Source of the DNA: Isoetes taiwanensis
Taxonomy: Eukaryota > Streptophyta > Lycopodiopsida > Isoetales > Isoetaceae
Direction of reading: 5' to 3'
DNA: 64,000 nt
NCBI GenBank assembly: GCA_021234155.1
Contig: JAJEKV010000030.1
Coordinates: 2,910,751 to 2,974,750 of the forward strand
The position numbers and the translations under genes are program-made. Shown here piece by piece: positions 6,798 to 64,000 of the stretch (its first letter is position 1; each line of letters begins with the position of its first letter). The notes under the pieces were generated by a model. It made no database searches and was not told where the DNA came from. It saw only the letters and a program-made list of their open reading frames with translations.

Positions 6798-8618
6798 CTA
6801 GCACCCAAAAGCACTACATGCTTTTAGGCTGTTCACAAATGTGAACTTTGTGGGTTGCATGCCTTCCTGCTGCATTTCAGCATAACAATCGAATGCAAGA
6901 AGAGCATTCCCATGTTGTGAGCACCCTGCAATCAATGCATCCCATGCCCACACGTCTTCTTTTCCATGTTTGTGAAGAATGTCATATGATTCAGTCAAGT
7001 TTCCGCATCTGGCATACATCTCAATTAGTGAACTCCCGAGAGCATTGTCATGTTGAAGCTTTCTGCTTAAGATATGTTCATGAAGGCATCTGGCTTTTGT
7101 AGTTGCACCTATAGTCCCACATGCACTCAAAACACTTAGCAAAATGAATTTGTCTGGTTTTATGCATTTTTGTCGCATATCATTAACACAATCCAGTGCA
7201 AGCTGAGCTTCGTTGTTTTGGTTGTATCCAGCAATCATGGTGCCCCACAGCACCAGATCTTGGTTTTTTAATTTGTCAAATACCTTCCGTGCTTCCTCTA
7301 AGTTTCCACATTTTGTGTACATGTCCACGAGGCTGCTGCCCAAAACAATGTCAGATTGGAAACTGCTTTGTACTATTAAATCATGAATACGCCTCCCTTG
7401 TGTGATGCCCATGCTTATAGAAACCTTCACAACACTAGAAAATGTGAATCTATTTGGCCTTACACCATCCTCCAGCATGTTATCAAAACAGTCTACAGCA
7501 AAAGTGCTTTCTCCATGCTGAACGTATCCTGCAATCATTGCAGTCCATGAAACTACATCTCTAGATGGCAACTTATTAAAAACCTCGCTTGCCTGATCCA
7601 TGTCACCACACTTTGCATACATGTCAATGACTGTATTCCCCAAAATAAGGTCGGACTGAAGTCCATTCTGAATAATGTGCTCATGGATGCACTTACCCTG
7701 TTCTATAGCAGATATATGGCCACATGCTTTTAGGATGCTAAGGAACGTAATTTTATCTGGCTTGATCCCATCATGCTGCATTTCTTCATAACATACTAAG
7801 GCAGAAAAGCCTTCACCATGCTGGGCGTATCCTGCAACCATTGCTCCCCAAGAAATTGCATTCCGAGATGGCAGATTAAGGAACAGCTTGTAAGCCTCTT
7901 CCAATTTCCCACATTTTGCATACATGTCCACAAGGCTACTTCCCAACACAATGTCCATCTGAAATCCACTTGTAAGGATCTGATCGTGGAGAAGCCTGCC
8001 ATGTAGAGGAGTCAACGTTACAATACTTGCTTTAAGAACCGCAAGATAAACAAACTTATTGGTCTCAAGACCTGACCAAATCATTCTGTCATATAGCTGA
8101 AGAGCCCTATGACCTTCCCCTTGTTTTGCATTGGCTGCAATAACTGCACTCCAAGTATACTGAGTTGGATTTGCCACTGAGGTGAAATATTGATTTGCTT
8201 CAACTAAACTTCCACAAGTGGCAAGCAAACGTATGACTTGATCATTCAAGACATGAATTGAAGTAAGCCCACCATGAAGAATCAGCAACTGCATACGCCT
8301 AGAAAGGCTCAAGTTTTGCACCTTTATACACTTCAGAAACAGCCCATAGGCATGGTCTCTGGATATGGTAGTTCCTTTTTGCTGCAGCAATTCAGCAGCC
8401 CTGATTGCATGTTCCAACCTCTGTTCTTCAAAATGCCTGAAGTCAAAATTTATAAGTTTCACCAAACCAATTGTGAAGAGTTGCAAACAATATCTAGAAT
8501 TATATACCTGCCACTTGCCAAAGTCACCATCGACCTGCAAGAAGCACCACATGTACACAATACTATGCTTCGTCCACCAAAGCATAAAAAGCACAAACTG
8601 AGGACAAATTGAACCCAC
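6798..8618 (-). CDS. PLS-type pentatricopeptide repeat (PPR) protein
   Basis: Plant PPR proteins bind organellar RNA and guide editing, splicing or stability; the target cannot be told from sequence. The 606-codon frame shows five regularly spaced repeat blocks, marked by motifs such as WSAVIAANAKQGEG, WGAMVAGYAQHGEG, WTAMIAGYVQHGES, WGTMIAGYNQNN and WDALIAGCSQHGN, alternating with LVDMYAKCG-type and IKPDKITFLSILKACG-type repeats, the PLS arrangement. It stops in the middle of a repeat at SLKACSAFGC, with no E or DYW domain, so it is either a short PLS protein or truncated at its C-terminus. The repeat exon probably begins near 8436 after a GT-AG intron (donor GTATATAATT). The true N-terminus lies in an upstream exon, so the first residues of the open frame are likely intronic. 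Copy 2 at 11.9-13.5 kb is disrupted. Confidence 0.85.
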   Translation of the reverse strand: MGSICPQFVLFMLWWTKHSIVYMWCFLQVDGDFGKWQVYNSRYCLQLFTIGLVKLINFDFRHFEEQRLEHAIRAAELLQQKGTTISRDHAYGLFLKCIKVQNLSLSRRMQLLILHGGLTSIHVLNDQVIRLLATCGSLVEANQYFTSVANPTQYTWSAVIAANAKQGEGHRALQLYDRMIWSGLETNKFVYLAVLKASIVTLTPLHGRLLHDQILTSGFQMDIVLGSSLVDMYAKCGKLEEAYKLFLNLPSRNAISWGAMVAGYAQHGEGFSALVCYEEMQHDGIKPDKITFLSILKACGHISAIEQGKCIHEHIIQNGLQSDLILGNTVIDMYAKCGDMDQASEVFNKLPSRDVVSWTAMIAGYVQHGESTFAVDCFDNMLEDGVRPNRFTFSSVVKVSISMGITQGRRIHDLIVQSSFQSDIVLGSSLVDMYTKCGNLEEARKVFDKLKNQDLVLWGTMIAGYNQNNEAQLALDCVNDMRQKCIKPDKFILLSVLSACGTIGATTKARCLHEHILSRKLQHDNALGSSLIEMYARCGNLTESYDILHKHGKEDVWAWDALIAGCSQHGNALLAFDCYAEMQQEGMQPTKFTFVNSLKACSAFGC

Positions 8619-10575: not shown

Positions 10576-11690
10576 GTACTAATGGTGAAGGATACGCATA
10601 AGAAGGTGGTGGAGGAGGAGGTGAGAGAGAGGGGGGAGGAGATGATTAGTATTTGTATGGAGGCAGTGGAGTAAGGGGTGATTCATATATGTAAGGAGGT
10701 GGTGGCGAGGGCGATCGAGGAGGAGACTGGTAACTATATGGAGGTGGAGTGGAAGGCGATGAAGGAGGTGGGGATTTGTAGACATAAGGAGGTGATGGAG
10801 AGGGTGATGGAGGAGGAGGCGAAGGTGATGCAGAAGGGGGGGATTTATAGACATATGGAGATGGTGGTGAAGGTGAAGGAGGAGGTGATGATTTATAGAT
10901 GTAAGGAGGTGGCGGCGAGGGCGATCGAGGAGGTGGGTAGACATATGGAGGTGGAGGGGAAGGCGATGGAGGAAGTGGGGATTTGTAGATATGTGGAGAT
11001 GGTGCCAACGGCAATGGAGGTGGAGGCAAAGGTGATACAGGAGGGGGTGATTTATAGACATATGGAGGTGGTGGCAAATATGATGGAGGAGGTGGTGATT
11101 TATAGATATAAGGAGGTGGTGGCGAGGGCAATGGATGACGAGGCGAAGGCGATGGAGGAGGTGGTGATTTATAGACGTAAGGAGGTGGTGGCAAGGGCAA
11201 TAGAAGAGGGGGAGATGGGTAAACATATGGAGGTGGAGGAGAAGGCAATAGAGGAGGTGGGGATTTGTAGATATAAGGAGGTGATGGCGAGGGAAATGGA
11301 CGAGGAGGCTAAATGTGATACTGAGAGGGGGGTGATTTATAGACATATGGTGATGGTGGCAAAGGTGATGGAGGAGGTGGTGATTTATAGATGTAAGGAG
11401 GTTGTGGTGAGGGCGTTCGAGGAGGTGGAGATTGATAAACATATGGAGAATTTGTAGACATAAGGAGGTGGTGGCGAGGGCAATGGAGGAGGTGGTAAAG
11501 GTGATGCAGGAGGGGGGGATTTATAGACATATGGAGGTGGCGACGAAGGTGATGGAGGGGGTGGCAGCGGTGAGGGCGATTGAGGAGATGGAGATTGGTA
11601 GACATATGGAGATTGGGAAGGCGATGGAGGAGGTGGAGATTTGTAGACATAAGGAGGTGGTGGCGAGGGCAATGGAGGAGGAGGCAAAGG
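10576..11690 (-). pseudogene. Extensin copy 1, 5'-truncated
   Basis: The minus strand encodes extensin blocks of the type SPPPPYVYKSPPPPSPSPPP, nearly identical to the C-terminal two thirds of the extensin at 16.3-18.1 kb. The coding sequence is cut at 11690, where duplicated PPR-flank sequence begins, so signal peptide, N-terminal domain and promoter are missing. Relative to copy 2 it also has an internal deletion near 11447 and a short frame-breaking change near 11310 (GGCTAAATGTGATACTGAG against GGCGAAGGTGATACAGG). The frame ends at PPYKY followed by TAA, as in copy 2. Without a promoter it is probably silent. Confidence 0.85.
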
Positions 11691-11852
11691 TCTACATGTA
11701 TCGGCTTAGAATCAAAACATAGTTAATCCCCTTATGAGACTTTTGCACAAATTATTGTCAGAAGCAAGCAGTGTTCAAAGAGCTGGACATAACACAGCTT
11801 GAGGCCAAACCAGGAAGCTTTGCAGGGCGAAACCATATCCAGATCCATTAAG

Positions 11853-13492
11853 CTAGCACCCAAAAGCACTACATGCTTTTAGGCTGTTCACAAATGTGAA
11901 CTTTGTGGGTTGCATGCCTTCCTGCTGCATTTCAGCATAACAATCGAATGCAAGAAGAGCATTCCCATGTTGTGAGCACCCTGCAATCAATGCATCCCAT
12001 GCCCACACGTCTTCTTTTCCATGTTTGTGAAGAATGTCATATGATTCAGTCAAGTTTCCGCACCTGGCATACATCTCAATTAGTGAACTCCCGAGAGCAT
12101 TGTCATGTTGAAGCTTTCTGCTTAAGATATGCATGAAGGCATCTGGCTTTTGTAGTTGCACCTATAGTCCCACATGCACTCAAAACACTTAGCAAAATGA
12201 ATTTGTCTGGTTTTATGCATTTTTGTCGCATATCATTAACACAATCCAAAGGTAAGCCGAGCTTCGTTGTTTTGGTTGTATCCAAAGAATCATGGTGCCC
12301 CACAGCACCAGATCTTGGTTTTTGAATTTGTCAAATACCTTCCGTGCTTCCTCTAAGTTTCCACATTTTGTGTACATGTCCACGAGGCTGCTGCCCAAAA
12401 CAATGTCAGATTGGAAACTGCTTTGTACTATTAAATCATGAATACGCCTCCCTTGTGTGATGCCCATGCTTATAGAAACCTTCACAACACTAGAAAATGT
12501 GAATCTATTTGGCCTTACACCATCCTCCTCCAAAGATGTTATCAAAACAAGTCTACAAACAAAAGTGCTTTCTCCATGTTGACGTATCCTCGCAATCATT
12601 GCGCAGTCCATGAAACTACATCTCTAGATGGCAACTTATTAAAACCTCGCTTGCACGATCCATGTCACCACACTTTGCATACATGTCAATGACCAGATTC
12701 CCCAAAATAAGGTCGGATCAAGTCCATTCTCGAATAATGTGCTCATGGATGCACTTACCCTCGCTTCTATAGCGTATATATGGCCACATGCTTTTAGGAT
12801 GCTAAGGAACGTAATTTTATCCCGCTTGATCCCATCATGCTGCATTTCTTCATAACATACTAAGGCGTAAAAGCCTTCACCATGTTTGGGCGATCCGCAA
12901 CCATTGCTCCCCAAGAAATTGCATTCCGAGATGGCGATTAAGGAACGGCTTGTAAGCCTCTTCCAATTTCCCACATTTTGCATACATGTCCACAAGGCTA
13001 CTTCCCAACACAATGTCCATCTGAAATCCACTTGTAAGGATCTGATCGTGGAGAAGCCTGCCATGTAGAGGAGTCAACGTTACAATACTTGCTTTAAGAA
13101 CCGCAAGATAAACAAACTTATTGGTCTCAAGACCTGACCAAATCATTCTCGTCATATAGCTGAAGAGCCCTATGACCTTCCCTTGTTTTGCATTGGCTGC
13201 AATAACTGCACTCCAAGTATACTGAGTTGGATTTGCCACTGAGGTGAAATATTGATTTGCTTCAACTAAACTTTCACAAGTGGCAAGCAAACGTATGACT
13301 TGATCATTCAAGACATGAATTGAAGTAAGCCCACCATGAAGAATCAGCAGAATCGCATACGCCTAGAAAGGCTCAAGTTTTGCACCTTTATACACTTCGG
13401 AAACAGCCCATAGGCATGGTCTCCTCGATATGGTAGTTCCTTTTTGCCGCGGCAATTCAAGAAATTACGATTGCATGTTCCAACCTCGTTCT
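11853..13492 (-). pseudogene. PPR copy 2, multiply frameshifted
   Basis: Every part of the PPR repeat exon is present but spread over at least five overlapping frames. The 3' end (11853-12120) is almost identical to copy 1, ending in the same SLKACSAFGC stop. From about 12.12 kb upstream, one- to four-base indels and substitutions break the frame repeatedly, and most of them sit on CAG or CTG triplets of copy 1. As it stands it cannot make a PPR protein. Because the lesions are so motif-specific, sequencing or consensus error is a real alternative to decay. Confidence 0.8.
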
Positions 13493-14963
13493 TCAAAATG
13501 CCCGAAGTCAAAATTTATAAGTTTTACCAAACCAATTGTGAAGAGTTGCAAACAATATCTAGAATTATATACCGCCACTTGCCAAAGTCACCATCGACCT
13601 GCAAAGAAGCACCACATGTACACAATACTATGCTTCATCCACCAAAGCATAAAAAGCACAAACCCGAAGACAAATTGAACCCACATGTTTATAGAAGAAT
13701 CATTTTGCTTTTCGATATGTAGATGCGCTTCCCGGACATGGCTAAATCATAGGGCGAGCCGAGCACAGTAGCTGCAGCCCTTGCTTTAGAATTGCATAAC
13801 CCCAATAAAATGTCCAAAATGATAAAGATCGGCATGTTTGGTTAGAGCTTCGGCTATGGTAGAGAAGAGCTCCTTACAATTGCCTTCACCAAGATAATAA
13901 ATCTTCATGAATGTTTGCTTCGCCAGAGCAATGCGACAACAAAATCACACCATTTTCATTCCATGTAGCGTAGAAATTAGAGAGGCCAGCTCCTAATGCG
14001 GAAGCACGCACCTTTCCCAGCTCCGACTCTCCATAATCCGAGCCTAGCGGAACCCGGTCAAATCTGAGTTTCCCTGTTTATTTGGACACCGAATCCATGG
14101 CAATTGAAATCTCGCCCAACATTGTTGCGTATGTTATCGAGTTATGAACAGTCTTGATCAAGCCCGCCATAGACAGATCGATAGTGACAATTTTGGAGCA
14201 AATTTGGAGTCTTTATATGCCAATGCCATCCCCTCGCCCCATGTAAGGGCATGAAGGACTAATTGTAAACTACTCTATTCTTGAGTTTATGCTCGCAACT
14301 AGGCAAAATTTGCCTTGCTTACGGCGCCCAAATCATAATACCAACGAAAAGAACGAGCTCCACAATTGCGAGTTTCGGAATGGACCAATTACCCTTTCTA
14401 AGTTATTTTGCAGGAATAATATAATTTATCCTGTAATCTAAACCCAGCCAAGACACACCCATTAACCGGGCTTTTGTGAATTTGCAAGAGATAGCTAAGC
14501 ACCCAAGATCGATGGATTTGGCAATTGGAGTTGTGAACTGTCTCTTGCAACGATAAACTCAAGGCCAAAAGGAAATAGATTACTGTTTTCTTGCTCTCTT
14601 AGGTCGATGGGGCTTTAAACATGGCCACCCCGAATGAAGCATAGCTCTACAGCGCCAGATTTGACGACTAGAGGACGGATTTGCAAGGGTAGGAGCCCTT
14701 TACCTATTTTGGATGCGCTATAGAAGTAGAGTCGGAGAGCAGACTAAATCTTTCAGATAATCTTGCTGCGGCAAGAGACATTTGGCCGCGCATTTAGCCC
14801 GGGTCATATTCCAGCAGCCCAGGTTGCTAGAGCTTCAATGCCATAGCCAGGAGCTGCAAAATATTTGGGGCTCCAGTTCCGACATACCCCAAATCCGACT
14901 CATAGAGCAGGGGATTCGATTGCTTCCAAAGCAAGAATCCTGTCGATTTTCTTTTTAATTTTT

Positions 14964-15714
14964 GGGAAAACTACCAAAATGCCCCTATGAGTTTATGTAA
15001 TTACTAAAATGCCCTTATGAGTTTCAAAATTACTAAAATGCCCCTGACTCAAATAAATATACAAATAAATTACCAATTTGCCCTTAGACATCAAATTTAA
15101 TTACCAAAATACCCCTACACATCAAACTTAATTACCAAAATGGCATTACATAACAATTTTGATCAATCTACACCAAATTTAATTACCAAAATGCCCTATA
15201 CTTCAAACTTAATTACAAAAATACCCCTACAGAGCCTTGTTGTGACACTTACAAGGAGACAATGTTTCTTGTGGTTTTCGCGCACGATGACATTGCTATT
15301 GGAGGCGTGTTACCATGAGCCACACACAGATTTTTTGAACGTCCGAAACCTAAACGCATGTGCATAGGAGAAGAAGATGTAGAGAAGAGGAATATCATTA
15401 TGGAAGGTGTAATGGAAAAGACACAATGCATGTTGTTGTATAGGCTCCAATTCGGTGATGATTGTGACTTCTGTAATCTCTTTGTTGAATTTAAACTTCA
15501 ATTCTTGAGGCATTTAGTATAGATTGCAGTAGAATAAGTATGTAAGGGCATTTTAGTAATTAAGTTTGGTGTGTAGGGGCAAATTGGTAATTTGTTTGTA
15601 TGTTTATTTTATACAGTATATTTATTTGAGCCAGGGGCATTTTGATAATTTTAAAACTCATAAGGGCATTTTGGTAATTACATAAACTCATAGGGGTATT
15701 TTGGTAGTTTTCCC
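14964..15714. mobile_element. Mutator-like miniature element with long TIRs
   Basis: The 751-bp insert starts GGGAAAACTACCAAAATGCC and ends with the inverse of nearly the same sequence. The inverted arms stay similar for about 100 bp and more weakly to about 180 bp, built of degenerate 'TTACCAAAATGCCC' repeats. It is bounded by a 9-bp duplication, TTAATTTTT, at 14955-14963 and 15715-15723. Long TIRs beginning with G and 9-bp target duplications are typical of Mutator-like elements. The interior has no transposase, so it is non-autonomous. The matching site in copy 1 (near 9900) is empty. Confidence 0.85.
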
Positions 15715-16272
15715 TTAATTTTTTTTATTTTTTTTCAAGGGCACGTGTCTCTCCCAGTTAAGAGATATTCCATGCATGTTTTGCATCCGTGCAGCATGGA
15801 GTGAAAGCCAATGCATGTTTTTCCATCTTGTAGCATGGAATGCGGGCACAATAAATAAATGACTATGTGAAATACATCCTCAAACAATTCCAATTTGAAA
15901 TTTCTATTTCGTGTCTCAAGAGAAAAGTTTGTTATCTTGCTAAAGAAGTAAAAAGATGTAAAAAGATGACAAGTAAAAAAAAAGGAATGTACAACAAGGA
16001 AGAGAAAGTGGTGCTAGGGAGAGGGAGGGAGGGAGGGAGGAGAGAGAGAGAAGGGGCATAAAAATTTGTATTTATTTATTAATTTCTTAAAGGAATAAAC
16101 AATGTATATCAACTTACATAGAGCAAGTGCATTGGCAGGTAAAATGTTGAGGTGGGGAGTTATGGTAATAAGGGGTTGGGGAGGAGCACTCAAATGATGG
16201 CGGTACTAATGGTGAAGGATACGCATAAGAAGGTGGTGGAGGAGGAGGTGAGGGAGAGGGGGGAGGAGATGA

Positions 16273-18082
16273 TTAGTATTTGTATGGAGGCAGTGGAGTA
16301 AGGGGTGATTCATATATGTAAGGAGGTGGTGGCGAGGGCGATCGAGGAGGAGACTGGTAACTATATGGAGGTGGAGTGGAAGGCGATGAAGGAGGTGGGG
16401 ATTTGTAGACATAAGGAGGTGATGGTGAGGGTGATGGAGGAGGAGGCGAAGGTGATGCAGAAGGGGGGGATTTATAGACATATGGAGATGGTGGTGAAGG
16501 TGAAGGAGGAGGTGATGATTTATAGACGTAAGGAGGTGGCGGCGAGGGCGATCGAGGAGGTGGGTAGACATATGGAGGTGGAGGGGAAGGCGATGGAGGA
16601 AGTGGGGATTTGTAGATATGTGGAGATGGTGCCACCGGCAATGGAGGTGGAGGCAAAGGTGATACAGGAGGGGGTGATTTATAGACATATGGAGGTGGTG
16701 GCAAATATGATGGAGGAGGTGGTGATTTATAGATATAAGGAGGTGGTGGCGAGGGCAATGGATGACGAGGCGAAGGTGATGGAGGAGGTGGTGATTTATA
16801 GACGTAAGGAGGTGGTGGCAAGGGCGATAGAAGAGGGGGAGATGGGTAAACATATGGAGGTGGAGGAGAAGGCAATAGAGGAGGTGGGGATTTGTAGATA
16901 TAAGGAGGTGATGGCGAGGGAAATGGACGAGGAGGCGAAGGTGATACAGGAGGGGGTGATTTATAGACATATGGTGATGGTGGCAAAGGTGATGGAGGAG
17001 GTGGTGATTTATAGATGTAAGGAGGTTGTGGTGAGGGCGTTCGAGGAGGTGGAGATTGATAAACATATGGAGGCGGAGGGGAAGGCGATGGAGGAGGTGA
17101 GAATTTGTAGACATAAGGAGGTGGTGGCGAGGGCAATGGAGGAGGTGGCGGCGAGGGCGATGGAGGAGGTGGTAAAGGTGATGCAGGAGGGGGGGATTTA
17201 TAGACATATGGAGGTGGCGACGAAGGTGATGGAGGGGGTGGCAGCGGTGAGGGCGATTGAGGAGATGGAGATTGGTAAACATATGGAGATTGGAAAGGCG
17301 ATGGAGGAGGTGGAGATTTGTAGACATAAGGAGGTGGTGGCGAGGGCAATGGAGGAGGAGGCAAAGGTGATACAGGAGGAGGTGATTTATAAACATATGG
17401 AGGTGGTGGCAAAGGTGATGAAGGAGGTGGTGATTTATAGGCATAAGGAGGTGGTGGCGAGGGCAATGGAGGAGGGGGAGATGTGTAAACATATGGAGGT
17501 GGAGGTGAGGGCAATGAAGGAGGGGGATTTTTTAACATAAAGAGGTGGTGGCGAGGGTGATAGAGGGGATGATTTATACATATAAGGTGGTGATGGCAAG
17601 GGCGATAGAGGAGGAGGGGTTTTATAGATATAAGGAGGAGGCGGTGAGGGAGATCGGGGAGGTGGTGATGGGTAAACATAGGGAGGTGATGGCGATGGGT
17701 AAACATAAGGAGGTTGAGGCGAGGGGGATAGGGGAGGTGGTGAAGGAGAGACATAATGTGGCAGAGGAAGAGGGGATTCATATGCTAGAGGTGGAGGTGA
17801 GGATGCATAAACTAAAGATGGAGGTGGTGGGGAGGCATATACAAGGGGTGGAGGAGGAGAAGATGAATACTCAAAATTCGGAATTGGGACAGAAGGACGA
17901 GGATATGCGGGTTGTTGAGAATGTAACCAAGGTGGCAACCACGGCAAAGGACGAAAGAAAAACTTGGAGCTTTTCCTTCTAGCCTCCGTAACTGAGTATG
18001 CAGTGCCTTGATCCAAATCATCTCCTGCAGCCCAAGCTCCAGCAATTAACACAAATAACAGTATGATGCTCAGTTGCTTCAT
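16273..18082 (-). CDS. Extensin (hydroxyproline-rich cell wall protein), one frameshift
   Basis: Extensins are secreted structural glycoproteins: prolines in SPPPP blocks are hydroxylated and arabinosylated, and tyrosines in YVY motifs are cross-linked in the wall. The start at 18080-18082 opens a signal peptide (MKQLSIILLFVLIAGAWA), then a basic stretch (TEARRKSSKFFFRPLP) and more than 25 PPPPYVYKSPPPP-type repeats. Two overlapping frames make up the protein: the N-terminal part runs from 18082 and the repeat part ends in a stop at 16273. The switch lies near 17530, at the A6 and C5 runs after LYVKK, and a single-base change would join them. The protein ends at PPYKY, then TAA. In the third extensin the same codon is CAA, so the stop may be a shared derived truncation. 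It is the only one of the three extensins with an obvious promoter. Confidence 0.85.
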
Positions 18083-18128
18083 ATTTTCTTCACTGTTCTA
18101 ACTTGTTTTCCTAAATGTGAAAGATGGA

Positions 18129-18136
18129 TTATATAG
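18129..18136 (-). promoter_or_regulatory. TATA box of the extensin gene
   Basis: TATATAAT on the minus strand lies about 50 bases before the ATG, leaving room for a 5' leader of roughly 20 bases. Confidence 0.6.
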
Positions 18137-19394
18137 GCCTCTTGATGCTATTTTTGAGGTAAAAATAGTCCTTGTAGCTTACTATCTTTTAAAATTTAGT
18201 CTGCAGAAAGAATTTCTCACTATCTTCTTTTTTTAGACATAAGCTTAAGTTCAGGCCATTCATTGTTCAGGATAAAATAATTTGATTAATAGATTTTATT
18301 AGCTGGGTGGTATTATAATTATCATATTATATTTATCTGTGTCAAAATGCTTGTGATATTTCACCAATCTACACTCTATATATTTGTGTCAAAGTGCTTG
18401 TGACATTTCATCCATCTGCACTCTGCATCCTCCGTATCTGTTACTCTTTTCATTCACCTAGCTATGTTTTTTTTCCATGCTCCCATGTTTCATTTGTATC
18501 ACGGTTTTTATGATAGTTATTTTGCAAGCAATGAATCTTACCATTTCCTTTGCATCTTTTGCTCCTTTTTTCTATGTTACGTTTTTTCCTCTCCCTCCCT
18601 CTCTGTTTTTTTCTTTTTCATTTTACGGTTGTACTGCTTTATTGTGCTTCAATTGTACAACATTTAAGGAGTTCTTACGAAGGTTATTGTCTTGAAGGTT
18701 GGTTTCCCCCAACTCCTGCTATTATTCTGTCAATGCAAGAGATTTATCTAAACGATAATGGATGATGCCAGTTGAAGGACATGCAAACAAATCAAGCCAT
18801 CTAACTTATTAATGGTTGTATGCGAACATTTGAATAATATAACTGAGATAAAATATCCATTATGAGTTTCACATACTAATTGCTGGTCTCTACTTTGTAC
18901 TTCGCTAGAAAACTTGTCATGTTTTGGTAATGGGCTGCTTCATAAGAAAGTATTGCACTTCAAGCCTTTAAAGGCAAATTGAGGCTTTTTATTTAACTGA
19001 GCATCTTCATCCTACCTTTCCATCATTGCATGCAAATAGTCTAGAAATGATCCTCTAGCTTAGTGAAAGCAAAAAACTCATAGAAATACGTAACATCATG
19101 GGAATTTATAATTAATTGTTTGGAGTATATAGATAAAAAAAGATTGTACAACCAATTTATTTCGAGTTTGCGTAAATTAAATAAGGCCTTAAACAACATA
19201 AACCATCAGTTGATGATTTTAGCGTGCATAAGGAGATTCTTTGAAAGGTTAGATAAACACCATTGCATCTCTTAGACTCTCTTCCCATTTGATTTATCAC
19301 CTACAAGCATAAATATATCCATGCATCTTTACAAAGTTTAGTTGAGCTACATATTTCACTCAAATTGTGAAAATGTTTTCATAAATTTATTTAT
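18137..19394. other. Intergenic, nothing recognised
   Basis: Upstream region of the extensin gene. 18340-18430 contains two related phrases (GTGTCAAAATGCTTGTGATATT and a second copy about 55 bases on). No gene is supported. Confidence 0.5.
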
Positions 19395-19745
19395 ACAGAA
19401 CATCGTCATTTGCTTGCAAGGAAATGGAATATTATTGTTCGATGCAGAACTTTTAGGTGAAATGTTTGTCTAAATTAGCTTGCCAAACTTCAACATCTAT
19501 GCATGATGTTATGAATCTTGAGAATTACTTTTAGTATTTTAAGGATTTATTAGGTAAGTTAAATGTGTTCCAAGACTATGTATAGCCTAAAATATGCTAT
19601 GACAAGCATTTTTAGCGAATAGTTAGAAAATGCAGTTCTATATAGAAGGAGATAAAACTCCAAGAAAATCAAAAGAAGAACAAAATACCAATGAAAAAAT
19701 GGAAAGAAACTTTGCTAAGGTTCATAAGGGCCTGAGGATTATTTA
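19395..19745. repeat. Block shared with 3300-3640
   Basis: Same orientation and closely similar to the block at 3.3 kb. It is followed at 19753-19773 by ACAATTACAATTACAT, the tail of the hairpin SINE family without its body. Confidence 0.8.
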
Positions 19746-19774
19746 TAAACTGTGAGTACAATTACAATTACATT

Positions 19775-19955
19775 AGTATAAATGCATCATAAAATAAAAT
19801 GTGATGATGACTACAGAACAATTGAACTTCCTCATTACATCTAGCATAGGCACTACATTAAGAGATACCCCATGCATATTTTGCATCCTTGCAGTATGGA
19901 GTGCCCATGCATGTTTTCCCATCTTGCAGCATGGAGTGCGGGCAAAATAAATGAA
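19775..19955. repeat. Extensin 3' flank, third copy
   Basis: Similar to 10036-10225 (shared AAATGCATCATAAAATAAAA and TCTAGCATAGGCACTACATT). It shows that the third extensin descends from the same larger duplicated segment, not from a copy of the coding part alone. Confidence 0.8.
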
Positions 19956-20289
19956 TGACACAATTCGTAATCTTTTCTAAATTCCCTAGCCATTGATGTG
20001 AAAAGATCGAGATCCAATTGTGAAGATATCTACCACATCATATTGTGATGAGGTGAAGTCGCTCTTGGATAGGCTAGAATCACGAAAGGGTCTAGGTCTA
20101 GTAGGGCGATGACAAGTTTAAAAAAAAAAAAAAAAAAGGAATCATACAACAAGGAAGAGAAAGTGATGCTAGAGAGAGAGAGAAATGAAATGGAACTGCA
20201 GATCACCAGGTCTATGAGAGAGAGAGAGGGGGGTGGGGGCATAAAAAATTTGTATTTATTTATTAATTTCTAAAAAGACTACAGAATGT

Positions 20290-21545
20290 ATTACATAGAG
20301 CACTGGCAGGTAAAATGTTGATGTGCGGAGTTAGGTAATAAGGGGTTGGGGAGGAGCACTCAAGTGATGGCGGTACTAATGATGAAGGATACAGAGAAGG
20401 AGGTGGTGGAGGAGGAGGTGAGGGATGGGGGAAGGAGGTGATTGGTATTTGTATGGAGGCAGTGGAGTAAGGGATGATTCATATATGTAAAGAGGTGGGG
20501 GCGAAGGTGATGTGGGGGGGAGGGGAGGGGGGTGGGGATTTGTAGGCATAAGGAGTGAGGGCGATCAGGGATGTGGAGATAGGTAAATATATGGAGGTCG
20601 AGTGGAAGGCAACGAAGGAGGTGGGGATTTGTAGACATAAGGAGGTGATGGCGAGCATGATGGAGGAGGAGGCAAAGGTGATGCAGGAGAGGGGGATTTA
20701 TAGACATATGGCGGTGGTGGTGAAGGTGAAGGAGGAGGTGGTGATTTATAGACGTAAGGAGGTGGCGACGAGAGTGATCGAGGAGGTGGAGATTGGTAGA
20801 CATATGGAGGTGGAGGTGGAGGGGAAGGTGATGGAGGAGGTAGGGATTTGTAGACATAAGGAGGTGGTGCCGAGGGCAATGAAGGAGGAGGCAAAGGTGA
20901 TATAGGTGGGGGTGATTTATAGATATACGAAGGTGGTGGCAAAGGTGATGGAGGAGGTGGTGATTTATAGATGTAAGAAGGTGGTGGCGAGTGCGATGGA
21001 GGATGGGAGATGGGTAAACATATTGAGGTGGAGGGAAATGAAATAGAGGAGGTGGGGATTTGTAGACATAAGGAGGTGGTGCAAAGGGCAATGGAGGAAG
21101 AGACGAAGGTGATAAAAGAGCGGGGAGCGGCGAGGGTGATCGAGGAGGTGGAGATTGGTAGACATAGAGAGGTGGAGGGGAAGGCGATGGAGGAGGTGGG
21201 GATTTGTAGACATAAGGAGGTGGTGCCGAGGACAATGGGGGAGGAGGCGAAGGTGATATGGAAGGGGGTTATTTATAGACATATGGAGGTGGTGGCAAAG
21301 GTGATGGAGGAGGTGGTGATTTATAGACGTAATGAGGTGGTGGCGAGGGCGATGGAGGGGGAGATGGGTAAACATATGGAGGTGGAGGGGATAGAGGAGG
21401 TGGGGATTTGTAGACATAAGGATGTGATGCAGAGGGCAATGGAGGAGGAGACGAAGGTGATACAAGAGGAGGTGATTATAGATATATGGAGGTGGTGGCA
21501 AAGGTGATAGAGGAGATGGTGATTTATAGACCTGAGGGGGAGGTG
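20290..21545 (-). pseudogene. Extensin copy 3, decayed and 5'-truncated
   Basis: SPPPPYVYKSPPPP-type blocks are readable on the minus strand but jump among all three frames several times, and a stretch near 20510 has become a G-rich run. No signal peptide or start is seen at the right end, where repeats stop at about 21545. It is useful for comparison: after PPYKY it has CAA (Gln) where copies 1 and 2 have TAA, so the longer C-terminus was probably ancestral. Confidence 0.75.
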
Positions 21546-38818: not shown

Positions 38819-41702
38819 TTGCATTGTGTGCTCGGGGGCTGCTTTGAGTCCCAAGCTCGATTGAGATGGCCAATTAGATTTATTACACACAAGAATGGTG
38901 ATACTCTAGAATGCCCTCTTGAACTACACACCCCAAGGCCCACCCAAGGCCATGTGGAAGATTTGGTGGTCGATGAGCATCCTTTGATCACAAGGAAGAG
39001 ACGCTATGTCTTTCATAAAAGGCAGCCAAAAGGTGCCCAAGAGGCCTAGAAGTGACAAATATTTAGAAAGGATGGAAAGTATGGCACCAACCAAAGAAAA
39101 CCTGGAGGCAATTAGGGGACAAGAGTGTTGCAACCTAGATTGCCAAAGGCATTACAATGTGGATGACCTCGTGCGGATAAGGTCCCAATACATTGGACAG
39201 CTTCAAAAAGATAGGATTAATTTCATTTACTCCTTGTGTAGGAATTCCAAATATGATGAAAACACAGATCCGGCTGCTATATCAATTGAGGGGAATGAAG
39301 GTATGTATGAGAGCATTGAGATGGATTCTTGGGGTGAGCAAGTCTTCATTTTACGAATCTACTAGGAGCAGGTTAGAAAAGGGCACACTTTGTTCCAACA
39401 TGGTAATGCACTCACTTTGAAACCTAGAGCAAATACTCTAAAGGCCATTCTGCAGTCTTGAGAGCTTTGTGAGATACATGTCTCAATCTATGCCCCACAA
39501 GTCGAAAGGTGAACGAGCACCTGTGTGCGAGTGGTGCAAAGAGTGTTGCCACAACACTATATCCAAAAGGAGTGCCTTAAGGAGGTCAACTCCATCCTAG
39601 AAACCACTTGGAGGTAGGCCTCTTTCTCAATCACATTTCAGCAAGTTATGGAGCACTCACTTCTGGGGCGTGAGTGTCCTACAACACATGCCATTCTCAA
39701 AGTGCAACACTTGCATTCAACTCAAGGATACACTTGCATCAACCGCAATAGAGAAAGAAAGAATGGCAATTAGGGAGCAATTTGCGATCACCAAAGGGAC
39801 CAAATATCATGTAGACAGTTGTATTGGCGTGGGGAGAACATTTTCGAGATGCAGCGGACAAATTTTTGTGTATAATTCATGATAAGATGGACCAACACAA
39901 GACTTTCTTGCCAAAGCTAGATCCTTTACCCAAAGCGTTGTCAAAACGCTTTTGGATGAAAGTAAGTCCGGCGGGTGTATTAACACATGGTCATGGAACT
40001 GGAACATATGGTCATTTTGTGCTTGATCTATGGAGAGATGATCCAAACTTCCATGTGAGCTCTATTTTCAAGTGCTTGAGAACACTAGAGAAAGGATCGA
40101 TAGAAGGGAGGAGGTATTCCCCTTCAAAGACCCATTTTGAGGCTTTGATGGATGATCAACCGCTTTGTTACCAAAGGCGGATAAAAAAGCTCACATCCAA
40201 GGTGCCTAGTGAATCAAGGAGGACTTGGGATGATTTCCCCTTACTAGAGAAATCACCGAGGAGCTATGTGTTCATTGGACAACCTGTTGGAAAGAAAAAC
40301 AAGAATAGATGGATGTTTGGGGCAATGTCATACTTGGATGCCAGTGGGAGTATTCAAAGTTGTGAAAGTGGGATTCATGATGGTTGGGCATACGCATGAT
40401 GATATTGATGGATTCTTTGAACTTTCTCCACCAAGCTCAAGAGAGAAAAACGTGACCACTCTCCCCGAACTAATGGATGTGTTTGAGAGCTGCATTGACC
40501 CCAACCCAATGGCTTTCTTGATGGATGAGGTTGCAGATTGGAAATCATTTGTAGAAGGATACTTGCTAGATGGCAAGGACCGGTTGACAGACACACAAAG
40601 CCACTTCAATTCAAGTTTTGGGTTAGGGATGGAATACCAATCATGCAATATAAGTGGAGACCAGGTGACAAGTTGTGGATGCCTGTACAAGGTATCGAAG
40701 TTGTGGCAAAGGGGTGTTTCTTTGGTGAAGTTCTCATTCCTAAAGGGCAGCCAAAACCACTACCTCCCTTCAAGACAGCCAAAGACTCTAGCCAACCGGT
40801 GAAGGGCATCAAGGATTACATAACGCGACTTTGGGATGATGTTCGAAATGGAAAGCACACCTCCACTCTTAAGAAAAATCAAATGGACTCCCTAATCAAG
40901 TCTTGGGAGAAAGTTGTAACATGCTTAGAAACCCAACAGCCCATGTGGGAGGGAGCTAAGAGACTGGTTCTTGCCCGGAGTCAAGATGGGAGGGTTCTTG
41001 CAAGCAGTCAAGAATGGGGTCCCAAGGGTTTGTGGGGGTAAAAGCATGTTAGGGTGTACCACTTTTGGAACCCCGCAAAAGTACATACACTAGGTTTTTA
41101 TTTTTCATTAAAGCTAGGTACAAAGGTCCAAAATAAAAGTCAAGGACGTTAATATTCAAAGAATAATGCTCACTTATATATAAAAGTTCCAAAATGTAAC
41201 TTTTATTGAGTGGTTTGTGGGGTAAGCTAAATAATACTTTTAAGGGACACCCTAACATGCTTTTACCACAGGAAGTAAGGCCTCAAAGCCAAGTGGTTTG
41301 ATCTTCCCCGAGTGGGATCCCTTTGAGGACATCAAGGAAGGATACTTTGTGCTAGTAAGGCCCGATGATGAGGACCTGTCCAATATGGTTAGGGGTGGCA
41401 CTCTCTGATGTGACCACCACTATGCCTCGATGGAGAGGAGTTGCGTCCCGATTCCAAATTCAATATTGGGAGCCCATTGGGAGGCACAAGAAGGGCAACT
41501 TGAAGGAGCAATACACCGATCACCGAGAAGAAGTGGAGGCCAAATTATGCTGACCCTCAAAGGAGGGAATTGGTGGAGTGTGTGGTATGGTCATATCCAA
41601 GTTCTCACATTGCAAAAGACAACACACACAAGATCCCAAGAAAGGAGATGGACAAGGCCATGAGCAACCTCCATGCTATATCATTGTATGAGGGTGCATA
41701 AT
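38819..41702 (+). pseudogene. Transposase-like gene of the 10.3-kb element (DUF7869-like)
   Basis: A gene is readable through several frames: an N-terminal part (ITRKRRYVFHKRQ), a Cys/His region (GQECCNLDCQRHYNVDDLVR and VCEWCKECCHNTIS), CNTCIQLKD, and a core with LTHGHGTGTYGHFV, NKNRWMFG and VGFMMVGHTHDDIDGFF. The C-terminal region has WRPGDKLWMPVQGIE, LIFPEWDPFEDIKEGYFVLV and FQIQYWEPIG, with a stop near 41700. The GHTHDDID and NKNR motifs recall plant and fungal proteins carrying a DUF7869-type domain, thought to be transposon-derived; this is from memory. At least five frame changes (for example near 39360, 40295, 40345 and 40600) and a 233-bp insert at 41036 make it non-functional. As the only long transposase-like gene in the element, it is the best candidate for its former transposase. 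Confidence 0.6.
41036..41268. mobile_element. 233-bp MITE inside the transposase-like gene
   Basis: It begins GGGGTAAAAGCATGTTAGGG and ends with the inverse, GGGACACCCTAACATGCTTTTACC read as ACACCCTAACATGCTTTTAC. The coding sequence before (KGLWG) and after (SKASKPSGLIFPEWDPF) it belongs to one reading context. The copy at 38.0 kb shares the left end and interior. Confidence 0.85.
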
Positions 41703-60549: not shown

Positions 60550-61480
60550 CGCGGTCTGTAGCAACTCGAAAAGCCCAGCAGTAGAGGACTAAAACCTGTA
60601 CGTCGTCCTCCTTTTCTTAAACCAGAATACGTTTTTAATTTCTCAATCTGATTGCTTAATCCGCACTTAGTTCTTCTTGACTCTGTTTATCCCAAAAGCT
60701 CCATGCAAATAAGCGCCCACGATCTAAACTTCTTATGTGCCCTGCCCTCCCTCTTTTATATGAGGCAAAGGAGAATCCTACAGGATTCCGGAACCTGTCT
60801 TTGAAGCTTCTAGCAGCTTCTACAGCATGCAAAGAAACATCCAGCACACACTGCATCCTTCTAAAAATTTTAAGAGCTTACACGTGTATAAATCTAACCA
60901 CTAAATTTTTTTAACCACCTAGGCCTAGCTACGTTTAAGCTGCCCCCTTATCCTCCATATTACAATTATATATTAGAGATAAAGCAACTGGAACAATGAC
61001 ATTGGAAGAAAAATATAAAACAACCCAGAGGAAAAGGCCAACATCATAGCTAAATATAGCAATGCGGTGCAGATCATTAAACTGAGCAGAGAGAATAGAA
61101 AGTGGCACCAAAGGAGCGAAAAACTAACGTGGAGCAAAAGGGGCAAAAAGTACAAAACAAATCAAAGTAAACGAAAAATGGATGGCACAAACATTAGAGC
61201 GGATTTGGGGTCTCAAAATGGCTCATATCTTGGGTTAAAGATTTCCACGTCAGATTCGCCACGACCAATCAGGTTTGCGCCTCTTTTACGAAAGTCAGTA
61301 TTAGTTGGCAGGTAGAAGGATGAGCAGGCTTACTTGGCATCCACATGGCGTATTTTCATAGGGGATGCCTGCGCTTTTGTTGCAACCATATTAATGGCCT
61401 GTATTTTTCGGGAATCACTTCGCTGCCCAAAATAATGGTGACTTTGACCGCTTGTCAGCGTCACCAACTCCCTTGTCAAA
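60550..61480. other. Intergenic, nothing recognised
   Basis: No supported gene. CGACCAATCAGG at about 61262 contains a CCAAT motif. Confidence 0.4.
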
Positions 61481-61494
61481 TTTTGGCGCCAAAC
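61481..61494. promoter_or_regulatory. Perfect E2F-type site
   Basis: TTTTGGCGCCAAAC contains the palindromic E2F consensus TTTSGCGCSAAA. E2F sites drive S-phase genes in plants. It lies about 1.5 kb before the H3-like gene and just ahead of unassigned plus-strand frames, so its target is unclear. Confidence 0.4.
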
Positions 61495-61522
61495 GTCTGT
61501 ACTGTCACTACGGCGCCTCTAT

Positions 61523-61972
61523 GTGCATCCTCTCCACCTTCACTCCTCATCTGCAATCCATGTCTCCTATAATTTCTGTATTCTTGCCACATTTACAGAA
61601 CTCCCAAGTGAAGAAGTGGGAGGTTTTGTCTCAATAGGTTCGTGGGTGAGTATGCTGCCATCAACGAGGGGCGAGCATAGAGTTAAGCGACAAAGGCGAT
61701 CAGACGTGCGGACACATTGGATAGGTAGGATAAAAGAGTTCAAGTTGAATTCTAGCGGCCGGAAAGTGGAAAGTATAACAATGCGACATGTATATACCCC
61801 TTCTGATATGGCCAAAGAGTTAATCTCCACCAAAAACAGCTTCCCAAAATTGCCCTCAAATGGTAACTACCTTAATCAGATCACACGACGCGAAGCTGTC
61901 TGTCAGCTATTTAAGTGCGTAGAAACAGTTTCATGTCGTGTGATCTCCTTATCTTTTCATTTCTTTCGTTGA
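61523..61972 (+). other. Unassigned 149-codon frame
   Basis: An open frame with plausible composition (RVKRQRRSDVRTHWIGRIKE, then HVYTPSDMAKELISTKNSFP) but no recognised domain. It could be an exon of a gene that starts after the E2F site. Low confidence. Confidence 0.25.
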
Positions 61973-62309
61973 CACGTGTTTACAAACAAATTTATTGTGC
62001 AGGTTTATGTTTATCAGACGTCGTGGATGTTGTTCCAGCCGAAAGCATTAGTGTATGGATGCCGTGACCTTGCGGGGTATAGGTATTTGGTTTTACAGAC
62101 ATGATTACAACGTAAAGTCAGGAAACCGAGCTTGAGGCCGGTTGAATTTTCCCCTTTAGGTGAACTTTGTAAGCCACAGACTAATGAGAACAATGTAATT
62201 GCAATGAAAAAATGCCTGACTGACGAGGTGCAAGCGGGAATGTCTAAAAACTGAGGCGTGAGGATGAGTTTCAAAATCTTCACATCGTTTGAGGTATTTG
62301 CTAACATAT

Positions 62310-62811
62310 TCCAAATGGCGCAGGAAGTTCGAAAAGCTCCGAAGACATATACGTGCTTTCTCCCCCCTGCTGATTTTGTGGATGGCTTATTTTTTGTTCC
62401 GACCTGGGATGTTCGATTCCACGAATCATCCGGTCAACTAACAGAGTGCCGCGCAGTTAAGTCCTCCTTTAAGTTCAGATACTTTCTTCCAAAACAATAT
62501 TTATACGTGAATTGTCAACTAGAACGAAGGAAACAGAAAAAGAGAGGCTGCACAACTTTTTAGAAGCCGTTTGAGGACCATAGCAGACACTCCGATGCGG
62601 TAGATATTCGAGTATGGCGAGGGGAGGAAGTCATTTATACAGCCACCATGGAAATCGAATGACCATTATCAGAGCTAAGAGTGCTAATGGAGACAGAGGC
62701 GATTGCTAACGACTTGCATTATTTCATTGATGGCATTAGGTTTGGCTACAGACAAGAGGGAAATGTAAAGTTTAGTGAGTTCGCGATCAACAAGAAATTG
62801 TGTATCGCCTA
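62310..62811 (+). pseudogene. Unknown coding frame with two in-frame stops
   Basis: One reading frame stays protein-like for about 165 codons: TYTCFLPPADFVDGLFFVP, KFRYFLPKQYLYVNCQLE, TAG at 62561-62563, then VDIRVWRGEEVIYTATMEIE, TGA, PLSELRVLMETEAIANDL, HYFIDGIRFGYRQEGNVKF and a final stop near 62811. The composition is even and hydrophobic patterns continue across both stops, so this looks like a single protein with two nonsense mutations. The family is not recognised. It lies directly upstream of the H3-like gene in the same orientation. Confidence 0.4.
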
Positions 62812-62848
62812 GCGCTTTGAATCTCGGTTCTTTATTTGTGTTGTTGTT

Positions 62849-62901
62849 CGATGTTTTTTTAGGGTTCCGTATTTTGTCCGATATTTTTTTAGGGTTCCGT
62901 A
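62849..62901. repeat. Short tandem repeat before the H3-like gene
   Basis: CGATGTTTTTTTAGGGTTCC is repeated 30 bases later as CGATATTTTTTTAGGGTTCC, within the probable promoter region. Confidence 0.9.
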
Positions 62902-62987
62902 CAATTATTTAAAAAAGTTACCATTATATTTTACTTTTAACTTCTATTTATCTCTTGCTAGTTGTCTATTTTTGTCAGTGTTCGTAG

Positions 62988-62993
62988 TATAAA
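62988..62993 (+). promoter_or_regulatory. TATA-like box before the H3-like gene
   Basis: TATAAA lies only 26 bases before the ATG at 63014, which would leave almost no 5' leader, so its use is uncertain. Confidence 0.3.
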
Positions 62994-63013
62994 GCGCCAT
63001 CCGCTGAGAAGCC

Positions 63014-63901
63014 ATGGCTAGAACTAAGCAAACCGCAAGGATCCATCCAGGTGGTGTAAGGCCAGATGATTACATTAGTCTGCCTCCTTCATCCACATCT
63101 GAATCTGAAGTCTCTGATATAGATTCTCCTCCTCCGACCATGCCTAACAGAAGCTGCGGAAAAGAACTCCACATGACAGACAGTGGGAGAAGCAGTTCGG
63201 CAGTAAGTAGAGAGGTGCACTCCGGTTCGGAGACGGAGGATGAAAATGTGAGAGATCGTCGAGCAGAATATGATATCAGATTAATTATTGGGCAGCCGCC
63301 TCTTCTTGCTCTTCCTGCTCCTCCTGTGGATGCGCCAGGACCTTCAAATCAAAGGAGGAGGCCCAACGTCAGAAAGGGGAAGGCGACCAGAAATGTGAGG
63401 AGACGGCCGGAAGAGTCGGCCGAGCAACATCCGGCAAATGCTGAGGTGGGTGAGGGTAGTGGCCGGAAGCGGAAGACGAAGCCTGGCATTAAAGCGCTTT
63501 GCGAGATTAAGAAGTATCAGAAGAGCACTAAGATGGTCATTCCACGGCTCCCATTTGCGCGGCTCGTGAAAGAGATTCTGCAAGAATGTGGTGCGATGCA
63601 TCATACCAGTTACAGAATTCAAGCAACTGCCTTAAATGCTCTTCAAATGGCTTCAGAAGCAGTTGGTGTCGGTCTGTTCGAGGACTCGCAGCTTGCAACA
63701 ATACATGCCAAGCGGGTGACTGTCATGCCCAAGGACATGCGCCTGATCTTACGCATAAGGGATCCTGAGTACTATTGTGACGTTCCACGTATTTATACGG
63801 TCCACGTCACGTATTTATACGGGACACGTACAAATACACGCACGTCACCCTCTATAAATGTACGCCACCATGGGGGTATTGGAATAGGGGGGTTACTCTA
63901 A
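63014..63901 (+). CDS. Divergent histone H3-like protein with long tail
   Basis: A 295-codon open frame. Residues 2-9 (ARTKQTAR) equal the start of canonical H3, including K4, but K9 and S10 are absent (next are IHPGG). Residues 10-150 are an acidic and Ser/Pro-rich tail with a basic patch ([18 protein letters not shown], about 114-131). From 154 the histone fold is clear: [16 protein letters not shown] (alpha N), [11 protein letters not shown] (alpha 1), [20 protein letters not shown] (alpha 2) and [20 protein letters not shown] (loop 2 and alpha 3). Loop 1 ([10 protein letters not shown]) is four residues longer than in canonical H3; an enlarged loop 1 is a trait of centromeric H3. After RIR about 45 extra residues follow, encoded partly by the direct repeat CACGTATTTATACGG (63786, 63808). 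It would package DNA in nucleosomes if expressed. The frame has no intron, whereas plant CENH3 genes usually have several. Candidates are a centromeric H3 relative, a retrocopy or a novel variant. The 3' end may be altered. Confidence 0.7.
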
Positions 63902-64000
63902 AAAGGATTAAATTAGCTATGCTAATTTAACACATTAAATATAATAACCTATAACTTAGGAAATTAAGACTAAATAGAATTAATTAGGCTAATTACTGTT
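63902..64000. other. AT-rich end of window
   Basis: Follows GGGGGGTTACTCTAAAAAGG; AATTAGC repeats suggest a repeat boundary. Nothing else seen. Confidence 0.4.

What the first reader, a model, noticed from the sequence alone, without database searches (positions are those of the whole stretch)
63014..63901. Histone H3-like protein with an H3 N-terminus, long inserted tail and enlarged loop 1
The first eight residues after Met match H3 exactly, keeping K4 but losing K9 and S10. The core follows after about 150 unrelated residues, with loop 1 longer by four. The combination of an H3K4 mimic and centromere-like loop 1 in one intronless frame is unusual, and I know of no such described plant variant.
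Basis: partly seen in the sequence, partly recalled or inferred. Interest (0 to 1): 0.75.

Follow-up and report, generated by a model that had tools for sequence, protein, structure and literature searches.

The report
Jumping genes carrying their own histone
This odd histone H3 gene is a broken copy of a gene carried by a mobile DNA element in a plant genome (a quillwort, judging by assembly size); it matters because the copies tested of such histone genes, in two unrelated kinds of mobile element, show signs that selection once kept them working.

Summary
In detail: window 63014-63901 is an open frame with an H3 N-terminus (ARTKQTAR; K9->I, S10->H), a long unrelated tail and an H3 core with loop 1 longer by four. 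It is not a single host H3 or CENH3 gene. It is one of at least 183 matches in the genome (Isoetes taiwanensis, by assembly size) to a gene inside a DNA transposon with 30-bp terminal inverted repeats, whose left end is at window 61192. Eight of eight complete copies show no target-site duplication of 3 bp or more. The window copy is dead: a 20.3-kb LTR element inserted at 63776, so residues 255-295 are LTR sequence. In 22 copies the gene shows purifying selection while the element spread (internal-branch dN/dS: core 0.18, residues 2-17 about 0; terminal branches 0.8-0.9). A second family (135 further H3-like loci listed; 15 of 16 read are intact from Met) is an H3-fusion gene; in both surroundings examined it lies inside a Ty3/Gypsy retrotransposon (16 copies: core dN/dS 0.04). 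Both elements carry a homologous second gene beside the histone. Fungal hAT elements with an H3 gene are the precedent; selection-maintained histones in two plant element classes I did not find in my searches.

The parts
61192..61221 (+). left terminal inverted repeat of the DNA transposon, CATTAGAGCGGATTTGGGGTCTCAAAATGG (one difference from the family TIR)
   Evidence: a right TIR (with differences) at G000:C1035 about 2998478
61192..63775 (+). left 2.6 kb of the histone-carrying DNA transposon, up to the point where the LTR element is inserted
   Evidence: blastn about 90-92% identity to other copies
61523..62811 (+). region (end approximate) with broken open frames (149 and 101 aa in the window; 181, 152, 134 aa in C1078) upstream of the histone; no Pfam match; function unknown
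63014..63775 (+). histone H3-like gene, residues 1-254 of the family protein (H3 N-terminus, long tail, H3 core with +4 loop 1)
63771..63775 (+). first copy of the 5-bp target-site duplication ACTAT of the LTR insertion (second copy at C1035:2994865-2994869, followed by GGTCAAAATTTTATGGCTGAA = GQNFMAE of the histone)
63776..64000 (+). 5' LTR of a 20,339-bp LTR element inserted in the histone gene (starts TGTGAC; second LTR from about C1035:2993216, 95.8% identical over 784 bp; ends GTCACA at 2994864). It encodes residues 255-295 of the reported frame by accident

Best explanation
SHOWN: the frame is an interrupted, decaying copy of a histone H3-like gene that belongs to a TIR DNA transposon of this plant. 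The element inserts without a target-site duplication in the copies tested. In the copies analysed its histone gene kept the H3 N-terminus and histone core under purifying selection while the element multiplied, and copies decay close to neutrally afterwards. A second family of H3-fusion genes lies, in the two surroundings examined, just inside the 5' LTR of a Ty3/Gypsy element with a chromodomain integrase, is under strong constraint, and is followed by a second gene homologous to the one after the histone in the DNA transposon. INFERRED: the elements express an H3-type histone that pairs with host H4 and enters nucleosomes or pre-nucleosomal complexes, probably with the second protein, which has acidic stretches, as partner or chaperone. 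The DNA-transposon version offers an H3K4 tail (active mark) without the K9 and K14 positions, so the most likely benefit is a locally or transiently less silenceable chromatin state that favours element expression or mobilisation. About 0.97 for the transposon-gene part, about 0.8 that it acts as a protein for the element, about 0.4 for the anti-silencing mechanism; the score below is for the whole.
For: At least 183 matches in the own genome, some copies giving two rows (133 of 8234 candidates scored). Shared flanks and perfect 30-bp TIRs; 1701 TIR ends within 2 mismatches, control 0. No TSD of 3 bp or more in 8 of 8 complete elements and gapless paralogous empty sites in 3 of 3 aligned, for the C1052 copy. 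Codon ML on 22 copies: core w_internal 0.18 against w_terminal 0.82 (2dL 25.8 against internal w=1); residues 2-17 about 0 against 0.89 (2dL 14.4); tail from residue 10 0.52 against 1.17 (2dL 6.8). Differences by codon position: residues 1-17 5, 5, 25; rest of tail 162, 144, 182. Second family: 135 loci at 71-86% identity to H3 listed after 15 canonical genes; 15 of 16 read have an intact frame from a start M-x-x-[TI]-K; LTRs, gag, protease, RT, RNase H, integrase and chromodomain in the C1064 copy; one-omega core 0.04, front 0.18 on 16 copies. Homologous second gene in both elements, tblastn 1e-8 over 299 aa. H4 control: 16 genes at 99-100%, 43 matches in all from 69 candidates.
Against: No expression data. 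Within the young DNA-transposon subfamily alone (19 copies) core constraint is only marginal (2dL 3.5) and the tail shows none (0.2), although residues 2-17 still do (7.3); with 13 stop-free copies the tail is not significant (2.8). Copies had to match loosely at both the N-terminus and the core to enter the fits, which favours preserved ones. Many copies carry stops. The second gene of the DNA transposon shows no constraint in the two comparisons made (10 and 12 synonymous against 65 and 27 nonsynonymous codons, partly frameshift noise), and that of the Gypsy element only a moderate one. Linkage of the second family to the retrotransposon was read at two loci only. Nucleosome incorporation, chaperone role and anti-silencing are untested; the single-sequence structure prediction failed (mean pLDDT 41). 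Whether the two histone lineages share one capture is not resolved by the histone tree.
Confidence: 0.6

Rival explanations
1. Passive passenger: a host H3 was captured by chance (transduplication) and copied along without function, as described for Pseudocercospora fijiensis.
For: Precedent: hundreds of H3-like copies in a hAT element, all inactivated except the original host gene (abstract and Results part 1 of PMC6710886). Many copies here carry stops, the window copy evolves neutrally, and in the young subfamily alone core constraint is marginal.
Against: Internal-branch dN/dS of 0.18 (core) and about 0 (residues 2-17), against 0.8-0.9 on terminal branches; 0.04 for the core in the second family with 15 of 16 read frames intact; the same two-gene pair in two element classes.
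Confidence: 0.12
2. Centromeric or centromere-targeting H3 (CENH3-like), either a host CENH3 or an element histone that steers insertion to centromeres.
For: Loop 1 longer by four, long unrelated tail; the tree does not reject grouping with CENH3 at 5% (p-AU 0.078).
Against: Dispersed multicopy element gene; keeps MARTKQTAR under constraint; forms its own clade (100/99) and does not group with AtCENH3 or CENP-A in the best tree, where long branches make placement unsure; the second family has no loop 1 extension.
Confidence: 0.08
3. Integration or packaging factor: the element histone joins nucleosomes or the integration complex and tethers the element's integrase, transposase or DNA to chromatin, rather than opposing silencing.
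For: The histone gene of the second family sits in an element with a chromodomain integrase and next to a protein with acidic stretches; the histone core is strongly constrained.
Against: No direct evidence for a contact; does not explain the constraint on K4-bearing residues 2-17 unless a K4 reader is the tether.
Confidence: 0.2

Closest known systems
hAT transposon with H3L in Pyrenophora tritici-repentis (PMC3538342, passages seen)
   Same: [quoted passage not shown] 26 very similar H3L genes; [quoted passage not shown]
   Different: Fungus; hAT dimerisation domain there, no such Pfam match here; tens of copies; no selection test in the passages seen; no retrotransposon counterpart or long tail described in the passages seen
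hAT transposon with captured H3 in Pseudocercospora fijiensis (PMC6710886, abstract and Results part 1 seen)
   Same: [quoted passage not shown]
   Different: 8-bp TSD and hAT domain; most copies truncated and all inactivated by RIP; exon-exon junctions point to capture of a host H3 transcript; amplified copies reported as inactivated, not constrained
Bracovirus CvBV-H4 (review PMC9145170, one passage seen; its tail and chromatin effects recalled)
   Same: A mobile or viral genome carrying a core histone that acts in a host
   Different: H4, virus of wasps; not a transposable element
Spy transposons, PHIS superfamily (PMC4482050, passages seen)
   Same: DNA transposon that inserts without target-site duplication
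   Different: Spy inserts within AAATTT; here no common target motif by eye in eight sites; no DDE match above cut-off for the putative transposase pieces
Ty3/Gypsy chromodomain retrotransposons (for the second family)
   Same: gag, protease, RT, RNase H, integrase with chromodomain, LTRs
   Different: Two extra genes, an H3 fusion and a partner gene, between 5' LTR and gag

Membership tests
CENH3/CENP-A | host gene at a conserved locus, one or few copies | tested here: not met
   at least 183 dispersed matches, in a TIR element where flanks were read
CENH3/CENP-A | longer loop 1 than H3 | tested here: met
   four extra residues
CENH3/CENP-A | groups with CENH3 in a tree | tested here: inconclusive
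   own clade 100/99; union with AtCENH3 and CENP-A p-AU 0.078
CENH3/CENP-A | centromere localisation | not testable with these tools
   needs imaging or ChIP
Histone H3 superfamily | histone fold with H3 sequence signature | tested here: met
   Pfam Histone 2.9e-30; PDB H3 chains E about 1e-27; by sequence, not by structure
Histone H3 superfamily | assembles with H4 into nucleosomes | not testable with these tools
   single-sequence fold had mean pLDDT 41
hAT transposon with captured H3 (fungal type) | H3-like gene between TIRs of a multicopy DNA element | tested here: met
hAT transposon with captured H3 (fungal type) | 8-bp TSD | tested here: not met
   no exact TSD of 3 bp or more in 8 of 8 complete copies; gapless empty sites 3 of 3 for one copy
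hAT transposon with captured H3 (fungal type) | hAT transposase/dimerisation domain | tested here: not met
   no such Pfam match among seven element frames, two of them pieces of the putative transposase
Spy (PHIS) | no TSD | tested here: met
Spy (PHIS) | insertion within AAATTT | tested here: not met
   flanks show no AAA|TTT
Spy (PHIS) | PHIS DDE transposase | tested here: inconclusive
   no Pfam match of the putative transposase pieces above cut-off; no structure made
Ty3/Gypsy (second histone family) | LTRs, gag, PR, RT, RNase H, integrase in Ty3 order | tested here: met
   C1064 copy; 98.9% identical direct repeats over 738 bp

The most novel reading that the evidence does not exclude
Mobile elements of two unrelated classes in one plant lineage run on a shared, selection-maintained two-gene module: their own H3-type histone plus an acidic partner protein (chaperone). 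The module builds element-owned nucleosomes that keep the H3K4 end but lack the silencing lysines, so element chromatin can be told apart from, or escapes, host silencing. To my knowledge this would be the first retrotransposon-encoded histone and the first transposon histone with evidence of selection; the DNA transposon that carries it may also belong to an undescribed superfamily that inserts without target-site duplication.
Probability: 0.35. Interest if true: 0.95.

Novelty: new variant of a known kind. Interest (0 to 1): 0.82.

Why it matters
Elements that encode a core histone could act directly on the chromatin that silences them. The fungal cases were read as inactivated capture or left open. 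Here constraint on the histone core and, in the DNA transposon, on the K4-bearing end makes the question 'do transposons use histones as tools?' testable in one plant genome. It also warns that H3 or CENH3 counts from this genome are inflated by many mobile copies.

Tried and rejected
Considered and rejected: (1) host H3 variant or CENH3 at this locus: rejected by copy number, TIRs and the LTR break. (2) Assembly artefact: rejected, many loci. (3) Viral origin: one scan of viral contigs with P0001 found no relative; a single close-relative scan, so weak. (4) Pure passenger: disfavoured by dN/dS, not excluded for the young subfamily core.

Led nowhere: structure prediction of P0001 alone (mean pLDDT 41); no fold search was made. 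Search for a conventional CENH3: the AtCENH3 query was swamped by other H3-like loci. A DNA pattern for HARRVT-x-M gave 10 sites (1 in the control); 9 were read at least in part (the tenth, C1028, has the same letters as C963): relics of the second family type, a decayed MARTKQTSRK frame (L116) and a further divergent lineage (L117, L118). CENH3 is therefore not located, which does not show absence. Identity of the putative transposase: no Pfam match above cut-off.

Rows dropped before counts: of 43 pieces fetched as histone copies of the DNA-transposon family (L001-L008, L027-L060, L066) I named 24 by eye as readable in frame; 22 passed (L041 and L066 did not match the N-terminal pattern). 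Frameshifted copies were not used, so the set leans to better-preserved copies. For TSDs ten elements were approached; two (C954, C948:710k) were dropped because no right TIR lay in the fetched piece, and a C1036 pair was left out because pairing was uncertain. In the eight tested the longest exact match of flanks is 2 bp (C948); with one mismatch allowed C908 has 4 bp. The second-family copies read were the four best CENH3-query hits and twelve chosen for long open frames, so '15 of 16 intact' is not a genome-wide rate. Candidates scored: 133 of 8234, 150 of 9022, 150 of 7073 and 144 of 2343; 40 of 995, 40 of 1341 and 40 of 757.

Full report
Observation. Pfam gives Histone at 2.9e-30 over residues 129-249; PDB H3 chains match the core at E about 1e-27 with a four-residue insertion in loop 1 and align MARTKQTAR at the start. 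By eye the likeness to the H3 tail runs to residue 16 (IHPGGVRP against KSTGGKAP), with K9, S10 and K14 replaced.

It is a repeat gene. In the window's own genome (1,658,258,908 bases, 1110 contigs) P0001 has at least 183 matches (133 of 8234 candidates scored; some copies give two rows), a good part of them in open frames. The paper on Isoetes taiwanensis gives 1658.30 Mb, 204 scaffolds plus 909 contigs and many PPR genes (PMC8566536, passages seen). Eight copies share about 90-94% identical DNA beyond the histone.

The element. Complete copies end in a 30-bp inverted repeat CATTAGGGCGGATTTGGGGTCTCAAAATGG, perfect in C948 (11.76 kb) and C1052 (4,602 bp). In C1078 and C948 the order is TIR, a region of unknown frames, the H3-like gene, a second gene with an acidic stretch, further frames without a Pfam match above cut-off, and, on the other strand towards the right TIR, a long broken frame that is the putative transposase. 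A 267-aa piece of it has 148 matches (144 of 2343 candidates scored). There are 1701 TIR ends within two mismatches and none in the control. Eight of eight complete elements lack an exact target-site duplication of 3 bp or more, and three of three paralogous empty sites aligned for the C1052 copy run without a gap across the junction.

The window copy. Its left TIR is at 61192-61221. At 63776 an LTR begins (TGTGAC...); the insertion ends at C1035:2994864 (...GTCACA), 20,339 bp later, flanked by ACTAT on both sides, and the histone then resumes in frame with YGQNFMAEY. A right TIR lies near C1035:2998478. So the reported C-terminus is LTR sequence. This copy differs from the majority of the other copies by 20 nonsynonymous and 13 synonymous codons, as expected of a dead copy.

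Selection. On 22 copies readable in frame, a codon model with separate dN/dS for internal and terminal branches gives 0.18 and 0.82 for the core, 0.52 and 1.17 for the tail from residue 10, and about 0 and 0.89 for residues 2-17. With only the 13 stop-free copies the core gives 0.04 and 0.64 (2dL 18.3), residues 2-17 2dL 7.0, the tail is not significant (2.8). Without the divergent subfamily (19 copies) core constraint is marginal (3.5) and the tail shows none (0.2), while residues 2-17 stay significant (7.3) (3.84 is the usual 5% mark). By codon position, residues 1-17 have 5, 5 and 25 differences, the rest of the tail 162, 144 and 182, the core 77, 47 and 137. This is the pattern of an element gene that worked while the element spread and decays after insertion. 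Entry to the set required a loose match at the N-terminus and in the core, a bias towards preserved copies; terminal values are nevertheless near 1.

A second family. A canonical H3 query listed 15 H3 genes at 96-98% identity and then 135 loci at 71-86% over residues about 25-135, about 94 of them, counted by eye, in frames over 200 aa (150 of 9022 candidates scored). Sixteen copies were read: 15 are 404-425-aa frames from a start M-x-x-[TI]-K with an H3 core at the C-terminus; one (L096) has a divergent front that runs out of the fetched piece. Around the C1064 copy lie direct repeats (98.9% over the 738 bp compared), a second gene, gag, protease, reverse transcriptase, RNase H, integrase and a chromodomain; the C985 copy aligns along most of the same stretch. 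Linkage to the retrotransposon was read in these two only. Codon fits on 16 copies give 0.04 for the core and 0.18 for the fused front. H4 as control gives 16 genes at 99-100% and 43 matches in all from 69 candidates.

A shared module. The second gene of the retrotransposon matches the gene behind the histone in the DNA transposon (tblastn 1e-8, 23% over 299 aa in C1056; 4e-5 in C948, 2e-4 in C1078). Gene order is the same. Between copies, the second gene shows a moderate excess of third-position changes in the retrotransposon and no sign of constraint in the DNA transposon. The histone tree holds each family together (100/99 and 94/87) but does not place the DNA-transposon clade; joining it with CENH3, with the second family or with L117 is not rejected (p-AU 0.078, 0.163, 0.153). 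One common capture followed by transfer between elements is the simplest reading, not a proven one.

Mechanism. Shown: mobile gene, retained histone signature, constraint in the copies analysed. Inferred: pairing with H4, entry into chromatin, the second protein as partner, and benefit by an H3K4-bearing, K9- and K14-less tail.

Known work. Fungal hAT elements with an H3 gene are described in Pyrenophora tritici-repentis (H3L plus a central ORF, ESTs; PMC3538342, passages) and Pseudocercospora fijiensis (784 copies, inactivated; PMC6710886, abstract and Results part 1). Spy elements lack target-site duplications but insert in AAATTT (PMC4482050, passages). Searches for a transposon- or retrotransposon-encoded histone (listings seen) showed none for plants; a 2026 review of gene capture in plants has no occurrence of 'histone' in its main text (PMC13317346, find), and the Isoetes genome paper none either. 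The library lacks most subscription papers.

Verdict.

Noticed in passing
G000:C1064:508543 onward and C985 about 6559000-6573979 (L085-L088): Ty3/Gypsy retrotransposon with an H3-fusion gene and a second gene before gag; 15 of 16 copies of the fusion gene that were read are intact from Met.
   Followed up: partly
L117 (C963), L118 (C1046), C1028:7245280: A further H3-like lineage ([32 protein letters not shown]...), 48-55% identical to H3 in the two read; the third site only shares the pattern letters; carrier not examined.
   Followed up: no
L116 (C1100:12191000-12195500): Decayed-looking frame with MARTKQTSRK start and, about 0.9 kb on, a frameshifted H3 core with HARRVTLMPKD; could be a broken relative or a poorly read host CENH3.
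   Followed up: partly
G000:C93:12495-13064, C556:578128-578719, C907:48984726-48985323; also pairs about 3.9-4.1 kb apart (C79, C204, C335, C357, C557): TIR pairs about 0.57-0.6 kb and about 4 kb apart, among the first 100 of 1701 ends listed, suggest MITE-like and mid-size non-autonomous classes of the same transposon.
   Followed up: no
window 10579-21507: Repeated long proline-rich frames (PPPPYVYKSPPP units, extensin-like by recall) in at least three blocks; no Pfam match for the one tested.
   Followed up: no
window 6798-8618 (-) and 12213-13311 (-): PPR protein gene (Pfam PPR_2 5.8e-60) and, by eye, a broken near-copy a few kb away.
   Followed up: partly
window 39824-40399 (+): Weak DUF7869 likeness (E 0.0053, below cut-off), possibly a fragment of another mobile element.
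   Followed up: no
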